DNA of 64,000 nt from Promicromonospora umidemergens. Lineage in GTDB: Bacteria; Actinomycetota; Actinomycetes; Actinomycetales; Cellulomonadaceae. The notes beneath the pieces are model-generated. The model saw only the letters and a list, made by a program, of their open reading frames with translations. It made no database searches and was not told where the DNA came from. Both the position numbers and the translations under genes were made by a program. The DNA is taken from positions 186,001-250,000 of the forward strand of contig NZ_JAMTCT010000003.1 in assembly GCF_024171995.1 (NCBI RefSeq), in the 5' to 3' direction. Below are positions 50,801-56,540 of this stretch, piece after piece (positions within the stretch are counted from its first letter, which is position 1; every line of letters begins with the position of its first letter).

Positions 50801-51342
50801 TGTTCGAGAGGTTCACGAAGGACGCCCGCTCCGCCGTCGTCGACGCCCAGCAGGTCGCCCGTGCCGCGCACAGCGACCAGATCGACAGCCGCCACCTGCT
50901 CGTCGCCCTCGCCGAGAGCGAGGGCCTTGCCCGCACCGCTCTGGCCGACGGCGGCCTCGACGTGACCGACGTCGTCGCGCGTGCCCGGGCAAGCATCGAG
51001 GCGGGCGACGCGCTCGACCACGGCGCGCTGGCCGCCGTCGGCATCGACCTCGACGAGGTCACGCGCCGCACCGAGGCCACGTTCGGCGAGGGTGCGCTCG
51101 CGCGCGCCGGCCGGGTCCTGCGCGTGCGCCGCAAGCACATCCCGTTCACCCCGGACGCGAAGAAGTCGCTGGAGCTCGCGCTGCGCGAGGCGATCCGGCT
51201 GGGCTCCAAGGAGATCAACGGCGGGCACCTGCTGCTCGGCCTCACGCGCGCCGAGTCACCTGGCCGTCGCGTCCTGGCGGACGCCGGAGCGGACCTCGAG
51301 CGCGTCCGGCGCCACGCGGAGGGCGCGAGCGAGGCGGTGTAG
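50800..51342 (+). CDS. Clp N-terminal (ClpN) double-domain protein without ATPase
   Basis: The 180-residue protein has two Clp_N repeats: FTKDARSAVVDAQQVARAAHSDQIDSRHLLVALAE at the start, and TPDAKKSLELALREAIRLGSKEINGGHLLLGLTR near 110-145. These normally bind adaptors or substrates at the N-terminus of ClpA/ClpC. There is no AAA+ module, so it may act as an adaptor, decoy or anti-adaptor for ClpC (inference). AGGAGG at 50789-50794 gives a strong start. Coupled to the HTH gene. Confidence 0.85.
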   Translation: MFERFTKDARSAVVDAQQVARAAHSDQIDSRHLLVALAESEGLARTALADGGLDVTDVVARARASIEAGDALDHGALAAVGIDLDEVTRRTEATFGEGALARAGRVLRVRRKHIPFTPDAKKSLELALREAIRLGSKEINGGHLLLGLTRAESPGRRVLADAGADLERVRRHAEGASEAV

Positions 51343-51375
51343 GCGGACTCGCCTGACCTACGACGACAGCGGTGC

Positions 51376-52263
51376 CTACTGGGTGATCACCTGAGCCTCA
51401 CCCATAACGATGTCCGTGGAGTCCTCAAGGGTAAACTCGATCGTTCCGGTATCGCCGATGCCCTGCCACTGCAAGATCCAGTACGAGGTGGCCGTGACCT
51501 TGTACTCGCCCTGCCGCGTGTAGCGGTGCCCGCAGTCGGGGGAATCTGCGATGTCGTACTTGTCTTCGTACGGGGTGCCGGAGCCGACACAGGTCACCGT
51601 GGTTCCGTCGCCCATGTTCCACACGATCTTGTCGACTCTGGCTGTCGCCGTCACCGAGAAGTTCCCGGCCGTCGCTGTCTCCGTGATCGGACCCATGGTG
51701 TGCCGGCCAGGATCCACGACCCACATCCACTGGGGCATCCCGACGATCCCGATGCTGCCAGGCTCGTCCTCGGGCACGATTCCGATGTCGATCGCGCGCA
51801 GGTTCATCTGGGCCCGGGCCTGCTCGGCGAGCTCCGCAGGGTCCGGCGTCGGCGGAGCTTCGGGGGCATCAGGCGCCCAGAACTCGGCTTCGACCGTGGG
51901 TCCGAATCGTTGGTTCGCGCCGCACAGTGCGGTGTGGATCGCGCCGTCCTCGTTCCCCTCCCAGACAGGCCTGTCCCTCGGAGGTTGTGGGTCTGCCAGG
52001 CCGATGTACAGGCAGCTCTGGCCGTCGACGGTTATACGCAGGTCGCCTCCACCGTCTGAACCGTCATCATTGCCGCTCCCGCCACTAGCATCGCCGCCGG
52101 TGTCCCCGTCGCCTCCGCCGCTGCCAGGGTCATCGGCTGTGACCTCACACTTCATTCCGTTGTCGCTCCACTGCACACATTCAGGCTCGGCAGCGGCTGC
52201 AGACCGCGCGAACAATGCCAGGGAAAGGGCGAGAACCAGCACGGCCACAGAGCGTCTCAGCAT
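51376..52263 (-). CDS. Secreted protein with Gly/Asp-rich linker and PKD-like domain
   Basis: The 295-residue precursor has a signal peptide to about residue 25 (LALFARSAAAAEP) and CVQWSDNGMKCEV. A linker of Gly, Ser and Asp follows (about 45-75). The C-terminal beta domain reads VDKIVWNMGDGTTVTCVGSG, then CGHRYTRQGEYKVTATSYW, the W-x-x-G-D-G and H-x-Y-x-x-x-G-x-Y pattern of PKD/Ig-like folds. Its start overlaps the stop of the upstream lipoprotein by 7 nt (ATGCTGA), so it is the last gene of the minus-strand operon. Confidence 0.65.
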   Translation of the reverse strand: MLRRSVAVLVLALSLALFARSAAAAEPECVQWSDNGMKCEVTADDPGSGGGDGDTGGDASGGSGNDDGSDGGGDLRITVDGQSCLYIGLADPQPPRDRPVWEGNEDGAIHTALCGANQRFGPTVEAEFWAPDAPEAPPTPDPAELAEQARAQMNLRAIDIGIVPEDEPGSIGIVGMPQWMWVVDPGRHTMGPITETATAGNFSVTATARVDKIVWNMGDGTTVTCVGSGTPYEDKYDIADSPDCGHRYTRQGEYKVTATSYWILQWQGIGDTGTIEFTLEDSTDIVMGEAQVITQ

Positions 52264-52886
52264 GACGTGAGCTCCGGGCCATCGGTGAAGTCGACCAGCC
52301 AGGGCCCCTTCGGGTACTCGTAGTTGGCCACGCCAACCTGGAGCGCCACGCGATCAGGCCTTGCGTCCGTGACGATCGACGTGCCGTCCTCGGTGACCAC
52401 GTCGACGTCGCTGAGGTCGTAGCAGACCGTAAAGATGACGTTCGGGATCTCCGGCGGAACCTCGTTCGGCCTGTTCGTCAGGCTGACTTCGGGGTCCTTG
52501 ATCGACTCGACCTTGATCCCTCCGACCTGGTGCACCCCCTGGTAGGCATGAGAGTTGACTCCGTTCCGCAGATCGGACAGCGCCGTCGTGATGGCGACCT
52601 TCTTGAAGTCCTCGACGTTGAAGTTCTTCGGGTCTCGCAGGGAGACTTCCATCACCCGGAAGTACTTACGAACCGCCGTTTCAGCCTTGGTGATCGCTTT
52701 CTCCTCGGGCGACGGCACGGTTGGCGACGGTGATGCGGACTGCGCGGCCGACGTCGACGTCGTCTCCGACGCAGCCGGCTCGACGGACGATCCCTGCTCG
52801 GCCGAGCAGGCAGTCAGACCGATCCCGAGGGAAAGGGCGGCACCCACGCTCAGTACGCGAGTGGCAAAACGGGGAGTGCGAGACAT
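52257..52886 (-). CDS. Lipoprotein of unknown function (gene C)
   Basis: The 209-residue precursor has signal VLSVGAALSLGIGLTAC with lipobox LTAC (Cys27). A Ser/Thr/Pro-rich linker follows to about 60. The soluble domain contains KAETAVRKYFRVMEVSLRDP and KVAITTALSDLRNG. Its first 54 codons and 5' flank are duplicated as a broken copy at 53567-53722. The stop overlaps the PKD-like gene start. Not recognised beyond this; a surface role is implied by the lipid anchor. Confidence 0.65.
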   Translation of the reverse strand: MSRTPRFATRVLSVGAALSLGIGLTACSAEQGSSVEPAASETTSTSAAQSASPSPTVPSPEEKAITKAETAVRKYFRVMEVSLRDPKNFNVEDFKKVAITTALSDLRNGVNSHAYQGVHQVGGIKVESIKDPEVSLTNRPNEVPPEIPNVIFTVCYDLSDVDVVTEDGTSIVTDARPDRVALQVGVANYEYPKGPWLVDFTDGPELTSC

Positions 52887-52964
52887 CTGAGGGCTTCTCC
52901 TTGGCTGATTCAGGCGGGACCGTGTGCCGCTCGCGCGTCGATTGCGATGCGGCGCTAGCGCAGA

Positions 52965-53492
52965 CTACGAGCGGTTCGTCGACGGGCTGACGACTGAAAC
53001 CGAGAGGTTCTGCGGAGCGGGCGGTTCCTTGATCATGAACGCCAGCTCGACATACCAGCCCTCACCCAGGTCGTCAGACTTCCTGAACCCGTGCTGGGCT
53101 TTCTCGACACCACCGCGAGGTTCATCAGCAGTCCATCCATCGTCTTCGAGAACCTTGGTCATTCGCTCGGCGGCTTGTTCCGGGGATATCTCGGCGTCGG
53201 GAGCAAGCTCGATATGGGCGTCCCACTGCCAGTACCGCCGACCGTTTGGGTCCTCGTCGTTAACTTCGGCGTTCTCCCACCGCAGTCCGCCACCGGCGAT
53301 GTCGTCCTGGTAGCGGTCGACGCCGTCGATCGTCGCGGTCAGTGCCTGCCCGACCTCTTCGGAACGCTCTTGAAGTTGCGTAACTGTCACGTCGCTCCTT
53401 GGGGTACATGCCGTGGTCAGGGTCATGGTCAGCGCGATAGGGCCCGCGAGGACAAGGCGCGACCGTCGCCTGCTCACGCGTGTCCTGTCCAC
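52965..53492 (-). CDS. Small lipoprotein, duplicated copy (A2)
   Basis: The 175-residue precursor has a basic N-terminus (SRRRSRLVLAG) and a hydrophobic stretch ending LTTAC. The mature domain includes NDEDPNGRRYWQWD and SPEQAAERMTKVLEDDGWTADEP, close to copy A1. The GTG at 53492 follows AGGA at the same distance as in A1. A longer in-frame start (ATG 53555, or fusion into the gene C remnant at 53684) is possible. The lipobox TTAC is slightly non-standard. Function unknown. Confidence 0.65.
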   Translation of the reverse strand: MDRTRVSRRRSRLVLAGPIALTMTLTTACTPRSDVTVTQLQERSEEVGQALTATIDGVDRYQDDIAGGGLRWENAEVNDEDPNGRRYWQWDAHIELAPDAEISPEQAAERMTKVLEDDGWTADEPRGGVEKAQHGFRKSDDLGEGWYVELAFMIKEPPAPQNLSVSVVSPSTNRS

Positions 53493-53566
53493 ATCCAAGC
53501 TTCCTGTGCGCGATGGCATCGGCCGGCTCCGTTTCCCTGTGTGATCACTCGACATCGAGATACTCG

Positions 53567-53722
53567 GCGATGCGGATGGCGAGGCCGACATCGACGTCGT
53601 CTCCGACGCAGCGGGCTCGACGGACGATCCCTGCTCAGCCGTGCAGGCAGTCAGACCTATCCCGAGGGAATGGGCGGCGCCCACGCGCAGTACGCGAGTG
53701 CGAATCGGGGAGTGCGAGACAC
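53567..53722 (-). pseudogene. Truncated, frameshifted remnant of lipoprotein gene C
   Basis: It matches the first 54 codons of gene C (52725-52886) including GIGLTAC and AEQGSSVEPAASETTS. The start codon is GTG instead of ATG, and one base is missing around codon 8, which shifts the frame. It ends abruptly at the duplication junction and runs on into the copied 3' tail of the DUF1023 gene. It was left behind by the tandem duplication. Confidence 0.8.
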
Positions 53723-53805
53723 CTGGGACTTCTCCTTGGAGACTCTCAGGGTTGAAGCACCACCACGCGGCCCACGCACGGGGTGCGACGCCGTTGTTGC
53801 GCGCA

Positions 53806-54333
53806 CTACGGACGGTTCGTAGAAGGACTGACGACAGTCACGAACAGGTTCTGAGGATCGGGCGGCGGGTCCTTCCAGTACGTGATCTCGACGGACCAGC
53901 CCTCACCCAAGTCGTCAGACTTGTGAAACCCGAGGCGGTCACTACCCGTATCTACCGCCGGCTCGCCAGCGGTCCACCCGTCCTCTTCCAGGACCTTGAT
54001 CATGCGCTCCGCAGCCTGTTCCGGAGTCAGCTCCGCATCGGCTGCGAGGACGATCGTCGCATCCCACTGCCAGTACCTCCTGCCGTTTGGGTCCTCGTCG
54101 TTGACTTCGGCGTTCTCCCAGCGCAGTCCGCCACCGGTGTGGTCGTCCTGGTAGCGGTCGACGCCGTCGATCGTCGCGGTCAGGGACTGCCCGATCTGTT
54201 CGGAGCGCTCCTGAAGTTGTGCAACTGTCACGTCGCTCCTTGGGGTACATGCCGTGGTGAGGGTCATGGTCAGCGCGATCAGGCCCGCCAGGACAAGGCG
54301 CGACCGTCGCCTGTTCGCGTGTGTCCGGTACAC
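53806..54333 (-). CDS. Small lipoprotein, original copy (A1)
   Basis: The 175-residue precursor resembles A2 along its full length: RRRSRLVLAG, LTTACTPRSDV, DGVDRYQDD, NDEDPNGRRYWQWD, and the C-terminal TVVSPSTNRP. The GTG at 54333 has AGGA 9 nt upstream. An in-frame ATG at 54396 would overlap the DUF1023 stop by 11 nt and would give a 196-residue form. It directly follows the hydrolase gene, so the two are in one operon. The domain is not recognised. Confidence 0.65.
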   Translation of the reverse strand: MYRTHANRRRSRLVLAGLIALTMTLTTACTPRSDVTVAQLQERSEQIGQSLTATIDGVDRYQDDHTGGGLRWENAEVNDEDPNGRRYWQWDATIVLAADAELTPEQAAERMIKVLEEDGWTAGEPAVDTGSDRLGFHKSDDLGEGWSVEITYWKDPPPDPQNLFVTVVSPSTNRP

Positions 54334-54385
54334 GTCCAAAGTTCCTGTGGGCGATGACATCGGCCAGCTCCGTTTCCCTGTGTGA

Positions 54386-56290
54386 TCACTCGACATCGAG
54401 GTACCTCGGCTCGTAGCCCTCGGCGTCGATCCCGTCGATGTTGTACAACTGTCCGCCCGTCACCAAGATCTCGTCGCCCGCGTATGCCTCGACGCGTGTG
54501 CCGGTGATGACACCGACGATGTTGTTGAACGAGGTCGAACCCTTGGTATAGACGCTGGAATGACTCTCGAAGACACCGGTGGACTCGATGTCGCCCTCGC
54601 TCCAGTTCGCGGCGTTGATATACCCGGTCTCCAGCCGAGTCACCTCAGGATCGCGCAACGCGGAGGCGCCGTGTCCAAGCTCGCCCGCGTCTGCACCCTG
54701 GATCAGGCCGACGACACTGTCGCGGCGGGCCATCTGTGTGTAGTGCGGCACGTCCTTGGTGTACGGGAAGTCCTGCACCGAGGTGTTGTCGTTACCCAGC
54801 CCTGCACCAGCGACATACATGACGCGGTCCACCCTTAGCCCCTCGCTCTCGGCGATGCCGAGCGCGGCGCTCCCGTAGGAGTGCGCCTCGGCCGTCAGCG
54901 TCGAGTCCGGGTGCACATCGATCGCGTGGATGAAGTCACGAAGCTTGGGCCCCAGGTCACGCGAGTAGCTCGCGCTCGCCGCCTCCGGGATGTTCTGGGG
55001 GAACTCGCCACCGGCCCACGCGAATACCGCTGTCGATCCGGCACTCTTGATGCGGTTCGCCGCGTCGTACAGGTTGTATACGTCGGTGTCGATCTCGTTG
55101 AAGTCGTCCATCCGCGTCGTAGTTCCCGGGACATGGACGGCCACGTTGTCCACCCAGTCCGGCACATCGCCGGCCTCGTCGTACGGGCCGCGATAGGTCG
55201 CGATGCTTGATCTGTTCGGGTCGAACGCCACCAGTTCTACGGTCGTGCGCGGAGGACTGACGGGCAACCCGTGTCTGTCGTATTGCTCCTGCGCCTTGTC
55301 CAGACCCCGATACTGCTCGTAGGAGTCGATCGCAGCCTGCAGCCGGTCGAGCTCCATCGCCAGCCTCAGGTCCGGCACGTACTGCCTACGTGCGCTGCTG
55401 AACCGGCTCGCCATGGCGGCCATCCGCAGCTCCTCTTCAATCCGCGCCTTCTCGGCTTCCAGCCGGTCGATCTCGGTCGCGAGGTTGATCCGGTTGGCGT
55501 CGGCACGGAACTTGACCGGGACCCCGTTCAGATTTCCGATCACCATCGGCATGGCGGCTACCAACGCTGTTCGTTGCTCCGGGGTCAGGGTGTCCCACCA
55601 CTCCCGCACCTCCGACGCCAACCCGTCCAGGATCGTCTTCGTCGGCGCGAACTCGGCCACGCTCGGCGGGCCCACCGGCGACCACGCACCGGTCGAGGAG
55701 AACAGACCCGTGCGCCCCGTCAAGGCCGGGCCCAGACCCCTGGCGACCGGCACGATCTGCTCGTCCAGTGCCTTGATCCGGTCCGCGCACCGTTGCTCGG
55801 CCTCAAGGAGCACTGCGAACACCTGCTGAGCCCGGACGATCAGGTCCTGGTTCTGGTCGACCGTGTCCAGTTCCTGCAGCAGCATGGTGGCCACCCCGCC
55901 CGGGTTCGCGGCCCGTACCCGTGCCAGGAACGCGCCCGCTTCCACCTCAAGGTTCGCCAGCCGCTGCTTGACCACACCGACCTCGTCGACGTAGTCGTCC
56001 AGATACCGGGCCGCGTCCGAGAACTTCTCCTGCTCCCGCGACGCCGCACCGAGCGCAGGGTCCATCGCGCGATACAGGTCATCGGCCTCAGGAGCCTGGT
56101 AGTACTCAGGCAACCGGGACCACGCCGAGTGGACGTCCTGAACACTCTCCGCGGCCTGCTGCCCCATGGTCCGGGAGACCCGAGCCTGCTCCTGCGCCCA
56201 CTCCAACCCCAGAGCGTCGGACCGCTGCGGGAACACCGAGGGGTCGATCAACCCGCCAGCATCGGTCACGCGCACGTAAACCGCCACCAC
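54386..56290 (-). CDS. WXG-like/DUF1023 alpha-beta hydrolase
   Basis: The 634-residue protein has a long helical N-terminal half with an ESX-like W-x-x-L segment (HSAWSRLPEYY, about 54-64) and coiled-coil-like stretches to about 340. The linker motif REWWDTLTPEQRTALVAAMP is followed by IGNLNGVPVKFRADANRINL (229-270). A DUF1023 alpha/beta hydrolase domain (about 350-600) contains AHSYGSAAL with the probable nucleophile S471. No signal peptide is visible. ESX-type export or a cytoplasmic role are both possible. The GTG at 56290 has AAGGGG upstream. Its 3' end is the source of the duplication that follows. Confidence 0.8.
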   Translation of the reverse strand: MVAVYVRVTDAGGLIDPSVFPQRSDALGLEWAQEQARVSRTMGQQAAESVQDVHSAWSRLPEYYQAPEADDLYRAMDPALGAASREQEKFSDAARYLDDYVDEVGVVKQRLANLEVEAGAFLARVRAANPGGVATMLLQELDTVDQNQDLIVRAQQVFAVLLEAEQRCADRIKALDEQIVPVARGLGPALTGRTGLFSSTGAWSPVGPPSVAEFAPTKTILDGLASEVREWWDTLTPEQRTALVAAMPMVIGNLNGVPVKFRADANRINLATEIDRLEAEKARIEEELRMAAMASRFSSARRQYVPDLRLAMELDRLQAAIDSYEQYRGLDKAQEQYDRHGLPVSPPRTTVELVAFDPNRSSIATYRGPYDEAGDVPDWVDNVAVHVPGTTTRMDDFNEIDTDVYNLYDAANRIKSAGSTAVFAWAGGEFPQNIPEAASASYSRDLGPKLRDFIHAIDVHPDSTLTAEAHSYGSAALGIAESEGLRVDRVMYVAGAGLGNDNTSVQDFPYTKDVPHYTQMARRDSVVGLIQGADAGELGHGASALRDPEVTRLETGYINAANWSEGDIESTGVFESHSSVYTKGSTSFNNIVGVITGTRVEAYAGDEILVTGGQLYNIDGIDAEGYEPRYLDVE

Positions 56291-56540
56291 CTGATCCCCT
56301 TGTCCACGCCGGCCGCTGACGCCGGAGCCTACCCACCGGGATCCGGCGTGTACACGAATTGCATTCGGTGATCCCCCTCGCCCCTGGCCCGTGCGCCGTC
56401 AACCACGCGGACGGCGCGGGGGGCGGCGTGCCGCCGGTTTCGGCCGGACGTCTGACGAACTCACCGACTCCGGTCGGTTCCGGGGCTGCCGGAGACATAT
56501 GCACCGAAGATGCCGATCTGCACCGCTACGATCATGCGCC

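What the first reader, a model, noticed from the sequence alone, without database searches (positions are those of the whole stretch)
52725..54402. Recent tandem duplication with both breakpoints readable
An 840-bp unit (tail of the DUF1023 gene, lipoprotein A, 5' part of lipoprotein C) is present twice. The join near 53564 fuses codon 54 of a dead gene C copy to the last six codons (EYLDVE-stop) of the hydrolase gene, which fixes the event's order. Copy A1/A2 divergence and the frameshift in the C remnant show that A was kept as two genes while C' decayed.
Basis: seen in the sequence. Interest (0 to 1): 0.6.

Follow-up and report, generated by a model that had tools for sequence, protein, structure and literature searches.

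The report
Mosaic duplicated immunity-type lipoprotein gene
A bacterium of the genus Promicromonospora carries two side-by-side copies of a lipoprotein gene next to a probable secreted toxin; the copies are a patchwork of young and old sequence, which suggests that bacteria build up protection against rival toxins by copying and reshuffling such genes.

Summary
The duplication is real. A unit of about 840 bp (hydrolase tail, lipoprotein A, 5' part of lipoprotein C) occurs twice, and its junction is readable at 53565-53567 with a 3-nt CCG microhomology. "Recent duplication, then drift" does not fit: A1/A2 have dS 0.22 in codons 1-112 and 1.30 in codons 113-196, with a sharp break at 54062 (0 of 2000 shuffles). 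Recombination besides duplication shaped the copies.

Best reading: a type VII secretion (T7SS) effector with lipoprotein immunity genes. The neighbour gene has a helical N-terminus shared with other large proteins of the genome and an Abhydrolase_8 C-terminus. A-family lipoproteins directly follow such hydrolases in 5 of 6 loci found; in the sixth, A follows FtsK/SpoIIIE-ATPase and WXG100 genes. Of 20 hydrolase loci, 12 have a lipoprotein directly downstream and 4 of those 12 have tandem paralogues. Three of the 4 pairs are mosaic, each beyond all 90 ortholog controls. This parallels esaG/tipC immunity recombination in Firmicutes (PMC9484751).

Immunity and secretion are inferred, not shown. 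Unresolved: whether one copy's middle was replaced or the ends were homogenised.

The parts
54386..56290 (-). Putative T7SS effector: helical N-terminal domain plus Abhydrolase_8 (DUF1023) C-terminal domain
   Evidence: PF06259 E 1.9e-11, residues 377-504; N-terminal part shared with large proteins elsewhere in G000 and G002; AlphaFold2 model confident only for some N-terminal helices
53806..54396 (-). Lipoprotein A2, proposed immunity protein, adjacent to the effector
   Evidence: Open frame 196 aa with lipobox LTTAC; homologues directly downstream of hydrolases
54062..54396 (-). Conserved block of A2 (91% to A1; dS 0.22)
53740..54061 (-). Divergent block: 3' part of A2 (dS 1.30 to A1) and most of the spacer (end near 53740 approximate)
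53565..53722 (-). C', dead 5' remnant of lipoprotein C
   Evidence: 143 of 158 ungapped columns identical to C; one-base gap
53565..53567 (-). Duplication junction, CCG microhomology
52965..53555 (-). Lipoprotein A1, second copy; frame open upstream into C' to 53684
52257..52886 (-). Lipoprotein C, intact; homologues beside other modules with the shared N-terminal domain
51376..52263 (-). Gene D, secreted protein with weak PKD match; homologues at T7SS-linked modules
51341..56518 (.). Accessory module absent from this site in 12 of 12 other genus genomes examined

Best explanation
The locus is an effector-immunity module tied to a type VII secretion system. The hydrolase (helical N-terminus, Abhydrolase_8 C-terminus) is the effector, probably a lipase or esterase acting outside the membrane; lipoprotein A is its membrane-anchored immunity protein. 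An illegitimate join (CCG microhomology) between the hydrolase tail and codon ~53 of C duplicated A and left the dead fragment C'. Homologous recombination then made the two A genes a mosaic: either a divergent A allele replaced the middle of one copy (3' half of A plus spacer), or an older pair was homogenised at its ends by gene conversion. Two non-identical A proteins would widen protection against hydrolase variants. Shown here: duplication, junction, mosaic structure, gene linkage, recurrence in relatives. Inferred: secretion, toxicity, immunity, benefit.
For: dS 0.22/dN 0.066 in codons 1-112 against dS 1.30/dN 0.27 in codons 113-196; 0 of 2000 shuffles reach the break with all sites or with third positions only. 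C' is 90.5% identical to C although dead, while the spacer is far more diverged. A-family lipoproteins (6 loci with E below 1e-11): directly downstream of Abhydrolase_8 genes in the window, Promicromonospora sp. AC04, Myceligenerans indicum, G262 and G470; in G163 directly after an FtsK/SpoIIIE ATPase gene and a WXG100 gene. Own genome has EccC (660 bits), EccD and WXG100 genes; C and D homologues lie next to that EccC locus and beside other large proteins sharing the effector's N-terminus. 12 of 20 hydrolase loci have a lipoprotein within -106 to +28 nt of the stop; 4 of these 12 have tandem paralogues. Mature-part mosaic test: window LR 14.9, L060 12.7, L067 18.3 (each 0 of 1000), against a maximum of 10.7 in 90 ortholog controls.
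Against: No functional data. One of the 4 tandem pairs (L063) is not mosaic (LR 2.3, 393 of 1000), and the G262 pair reaches only LR 9.0 (3 of 1000), under the control maximum. Two of 90 controls also reached 0 of 300 shuffles. 8 of 20 hydrolase loci gave no downstream lipoprotein by the rule used (2 end within 200 bp, a third within 1 kb). dN/dS in the divergent part is about 0.2, so no sign of positive selection. No Pfam, NCBIfam or PDB-sequence family for A above cut-off. The hydrolase gene is about 5 kb from any EccC gene only in other modules, not in the window; secretion rests on linkage by homology.
Confidence: 0.72

Rival explanations
1. Single recent tandem duplication followed only by drift and selection.
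For: Unit, junction and homology at both ends are those of a tandem duplication.
Against: Synonymous divergence differs about six-fold between the halves of A with a sharp break; the noncoding spacer is more diverged than dead C'. None of 90 ortholog segments reached this contrast.
Confidence: 0.05
2. Old duplication whose two ends (5' half of A; C/C') were later homogenised by gene conversion inside the genome, with no outside donor.
For: Tandem repeats convert readily; young ends and an old middle fit; in L067 the last ~50 codons of the mature part are identical at third positions, as after conversion.
Against: Needs two separate tracts, and preservation or refreshing of a dead C' fragment; replacement of the middle needs one event.
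Confidence: 0.35
3. Replacement of the middle of one copy by a divergent allele from another strain (one event); outgroups slightly favour A2 as the changed copy.
For: Where A1 and A2 differ in codons 113-196, AC04 matches A1 8 times and A2 3 times, M. indicum 7 and 3; in codons 1-112 2:2 and 1:1. Spacer homology shows the donor had the same A-C arrangement.
Against: The 8:3 and 7:3 counts are small and not independent; no donor found in the genomes searched or in plasmids.
Confidence: 0.45
4. A is not an immunity protein but an exported accessory or chaperone lipoprotein of the secretion module; its duplication is dosage or neutral.
For: The A2 model weakly resembles DcrB, DUF4853, LpqN and the T6SS chaperones SciW/EagT6 (Z 6-9, near background). 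C and D are also conserved with the modules.
Against: A follows hydrolase effectors specifically, while C and D also sit beside other effectors; lipobox implies a location outside the cytoplasm; recurrent mosaic tandem copies fit immunity arrays.
Confidence: 0.2

Closest known systems
Tandem T7SS immunity genes esaG (S. aureus) and tipC (S. mitis), PMC9484751 (abstract, passages and section 18 read)
   Same: Tandem non-identical immunity paralogues beside a T7SS toxin, conserved blocks and a variable part, recombination between paralogues; tipC has a predicted lipoprotein signal.
   Different: Firmicutes T7SSb, nuclease or lipid II phosphatase toxins, up to 12-15 copies; here Actinomycetota, hydrolase effector, two copies, another lipoprotein family, and a duplication unit spanning three genes with a dead by-product.
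TslA lipase toxin and TilA immunity lipoprotein, PMC10730906 (passages read)
   Same: T7SS lipase with an immunity lipoprotein; multiple non-identical tilA-related copies; authors suggest protection against TslA variants.
   Different: TslA has reversed domain order and Firmicutes partners; A has no Pfam match to DUF576.
M. tuberculosis lppA/lppB, PMC4770551 (passages read)
   Same: Adjacent lipoprotein genes with reported recombination and sites under selection.
   Different: No immunity role reported in the passages seen. That a DUF1023 gene lies beside them is recalled from memory and was not tested here.
Polymorphic toxin class Tox-AB hydrolase3, PMC3482391 (passages read)
   Same: Alpha/beta hydrolase toxin domains with GHSxG linked to WXG-type T7SS proteins in Actinobacteria.
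   Different: Listed immunity families are Imm66 and Imm69; A was not compared with them beyond Pfam. The text held has no mention of DUF1023 (first 300,000 characters).

Membership tests
Recombining tandem T7SS immunity genes (esaG/tipC type) | Tandem non-identical paralogues beside the effector gene | tested here: met
   A2 and A1 beside the hydrolase; 4 of 12 lipoprotein-bearing hydrolase loci have tandem paralogues
Recombining tandem T7SS immunity genes (esaG/tipC type) | Mosaic divergence: conserved blocks and variable blocks with recombination | tested here: met
   0 of 2000 shuffles; window, L060, L067 beyond 90 controls; L063 not. Parents of the mosaic not identified
Recombining tandem T7SS immunity genes (esaG/tipC type) | Protein neutralises the cognate toxin | not testable with these tools
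   Needs experiment
T7SS polymorphic effector | N-terminal secretion-type helical domain shared by proteins with different C-termini | tested here: met
   31-33% identity to N-termini of four other proteins; C-terminal families differ where found: Abhydrolase_8, Lipase_3/PGAP1, XopAD-like; two had no Pfam match
T7SS polymorphic effector | Match to Pfam WXG100 or LXG domain | tested here: not met
   Only Abhydrolase_8 above cut-off in the hydrolase
T7SS polymorphic effector | T7SS machinery in the genome | tested here: met
   EccC 660 bits, EccD, EccCa/EccCb over cut-off, WXG100
TilA/DUF576 immunity lipoprotein | DUF576 sequence family | tested here: not met
   No DUF576 in Pfam scan of A1 and A2 at E up to 1
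Simple recent tandem duplication | Even synonymous divergence along the unit | tested here: not met
   dS 0.22 against 1.30
Mog1/PsbP/DUF1795-like fold | Structural match clearly above background | tested here: inconclusive
   Best Z 8.9 (PA1624), 8.3 (DcrB), 8.2 (DUF4853), 7.1 (SciW), 6.1 (LpqN); background best Z 7-8

The most novel reading that the evidence does not exclude
Actinobacterial (mycobacterial-type) T7SS is an antibacterial weapon in this group: it exports DUF1023-type lipases, and cells keep pace with rival lipases by duplicating and recombining adjacent immunity lipoprotein genes, the same evolutionary engine known from Firmicutes T7SSb but with unrelated machinery subtype and immunity family. 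Recombining lipoprotein pairs in mycobacteria such as lppA/lppB might belong to the same kind.
Probability: 0.45. Interest if true: 0.75.

Novelty: new variant of a known kind. Interest (0 to 1): 0.5.

Why it matters
Recombination between tandem immunity genes is described for T7SS toxins of Firmicutes. If this reading holds, the same process acts on lipoproteins next to hydrolase effectors linked to the actinobacterial T7SS, which is mostly discussed for mycobacterial virulence. It gives a named pair of proteins and a testable prediction (A1 and A2 protect against different hydrolase variants), and it shows how a duplication scar with a dead by-product can record both the duplication and later reshuffling.

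Tried and rejected
Pfam and NCBIfam scans gave no family for A1, A2 or C above cut-off, and a PDB sequence search with the A alignment gave one chance-level hit. NCBIfam's weak IS110 transposase match to the hydrolase (17 bits, cut-off 140) was discarded. The genome-contig scan with the hydrolase found only 3 loci. The hydrolase structure model is poor (mean pLDDT 43.8) and was not searched. A tblastn search of plasmids found nothing. Assembly error as the source of the repeat was rejected because the copies differ by 9-32%. Positive selection was looked for and not seen (dN/dS about 0.2-0.3 in both halves). An idea that the first 21 codons of A are non-coding was tested and not supported clearly (codons 1-21 pS 0.14, pN 0.08, like codons 22-50). 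One search translated the AC04 hydrolase region in the wrong frame and was used only for gene D. My first gene call for the second G262 lipoprotein was too short and lacked its signal; one search shows the signal in frame. Four further A-profile matches at E 1e-4 to 5e-4 (G039, G123, G400, G028) were not counted as A loci. G163's second hydrolase place (L070) and L068 were outside the count of 20, which holds the 20 best places (E up to 1.3e-20). A lipoprotein-like gene after the hydrolase in L065 missed the lipobox rule and was counted as a miss. Weak structural matches were not used as evidence of function. Literature searches for an actinobacterial report: (listings; no paper reporting DUF1023 effectors with recombining lipoprotein immunity genes was seen, in this open-licence library only).
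Full report
What is there. On the minus strand the order is: hydrolase (56290-54386), lipoprotein A2 (54396-53806), C' remnant (53722-53565), lipoprotein A1 (53555-52965), lipoprotein C (52886-52257), gene D (52263-51376). Direct repeats at spacing 836-841 confirm the duplication. The junction joins C near codon 53 to the last codons of the hydrolase gene; CCG is shared by the three places involved. C' is identical to C in 143 of 158 ungapped columns, with a one-base gap and a GTG where C has ATG. C' is in frame with A1, so one open frame runs 53684-52965.

The copies are mosaic. Over A, dS is 0.22 and dN 0.066 in codons 1-112, and dS 1.30 and dN 0.27 in codons 113-196; the best single break is at 54062 and no shuffle of 2000 reaches it, with all sites or with third positions only. 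The spacer after A is still homologous between copies (0 of 2000 mononucleotide shuffles for the whole spacer, 6 of 2000 without its last 22 nt) but poorly conserved, while dead C' is 90.5% identical to C. A single duplication followed by drift does not give an old middle between two young ends. Either the middle of one copy was replaced by a divergent allele, or old copies were homogenised at their ends. Outgroups lean slightly to A2 as the changed copy: in codons 113-196, where A1 and A2 differ, AC04 matches A1 8 times and A2 3 times, M. indicum 7 and 3; in codons 1-112 the counts are 2:2 and 1:1. This is weak.

How unusual the mosaic is. The same third-position test on 90 ortholog segments of flanking genes (window against the other genus genomes) gave a median LR of 2.5 and a maximum of 10.7; 2 of 90 reached 0 of 300 shuffles. 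On the mature part only, the window pair has LR 14.9, the L060 pair 12.7, the L067 pair 18.3 (each 0 of 1000); the L063 pair has 2.3 (393 of 1000), and the between-species pair L058/L062 has 0.8 (921 of 1000). Two modules in one genome (L060_0 against L061_0) give 8.6 (1 of 1000) and the G262 tandem pair 9.0 (3 of 1000), both under the control maximum.

Genomic context. The genome is of 6.6 Mb. The module 51341-56518 is missing from this site in 12 of 12 other genus genomes: in 5 the two flanking genes are 53-312 bp apart, in 6 an S8-type protease gene of about 1250 codons sits there (one of them split into two frames), and in 1 (L114) a different frame is found and the left flank aligns only in part. 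A search for the hydrolase found it in 2 of 13 genus genomes.

Effector side. The hydrolase has PF06259 (Abhydrolase_8) at residues 377-504 (E 1.9e-11). Its N-terminal part matches four other large proteins, two in this genome and two in AC04 (31-33% identity). Some of these have other C-terminal domains (Lipase_3/PGAP1, XopAD-like), and two have no Pfam match. That is a polymorphic-toxin arrangement. No WXG100 or LXG Pfam match was found in the hydrolase. The model of the full protein is poor, confident only in N-terminal helices. The genome has T7SS genes: EccC (EccCa and EccCb over cut-off), EccD, WXG100. Homologues of C and D lie next to that EccC locus and in modules with the shared N-terminal domain.

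Immunity side. A-family proteins were found at 6 loci with E below 1e-11: the window (two copies), AC04 (one, plus a 5' remnant 92 of 131 columns identical), M. indicum, G163, G262 (two copies) and G470. In 5 of the 6 the gene directly upstream is an Abhydrolase_8 protein; in G163 it is a WXG100 gene preceded by an FtsK/SpoIIIE ATPase gene, with no hydrolase motif within the 18.5 kb held. Of the 20 best hydrolase places in 221 family genomes, 12 have a lipoprotein gene starting between -106 and +28 nt of the hydrolase stop; 2 of the 8 misses end within 200 bp and one within 1 kb. Four of the 12 have a second, 77-85% identical lipoprotein in tandem. The lipoproteins of the other loci form a second family that matches the A family in profile comparison (95.6%, E 1.1e-8, 80 columns, small alignments). 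The A2 model (mean pLDDT 70.9) gives only borderline structural matches.

Comparison with what is known. Garrett et al. 2022 (PMC9484751; abstract, passages and section 18 read) report recombination between tandem esaG and tipC T7SS immunity genes through conserved blocks; tipC encodes a predicted lipoprotein. TslA/TilA (PMC10730906; passages read) is a T7SS lipase with immunity lipoprotein, and the authors suggest that multiple non-identical tilA copies protect against TslA variants. PMC4770551 (passages read) reports recombination and selection signals in M. tuberculosis lppA and lppB. PMC3482391 (passages read) lists an alpha/beta hydrolase toxin class with WXG-type T7SS in Actinobacteria. 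The present case works like esaG/tipC; it is not a member of EsaG, TipC or TilA by any test made here.

Verdict. The duplication is confirmed; the simple history is not. The best-supported account is an effector with duplicated, recombining immunity lipoproteins. Function is inferred.

Noticed in passing
L073:6059-6181 (AC04): A 5' remnant of an A-like gene lies downstream of the intact A gene, so duplication and decay of A happened in this relative too.
   Followed up: partly
window 55-56 kb region, hydrolase residues 469-473: The window hydrolase has AHSYG where the two relatives have GHSYG at the nucleophile motif.
   Followed up: no
window 52965-53684: The C' remnant is in frame with A1, giving a 239-codon open frame that could yield a chimeric lipoprotein from an internal GTG.
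   Followed up: no
L110, L111, L112, L113, L116, L117: The same chromosomal site holds a large S8-type protease gene in 6 of 12 genus genomes; in L116 it is split into two frames.
   Followed up: partly
G000 contig 3 end and contig 23 start: The same WXG100 match (60.7 bits) occurs at both contig ends, so these contigs may adjoin at a T7SS locus.
   Followed up: no
L014:8132-8488 and L088:13472-13819: Small DUF6507 proteins (about 115 aa) recur beside these modules and may be secretion partners.
   Followed up: no
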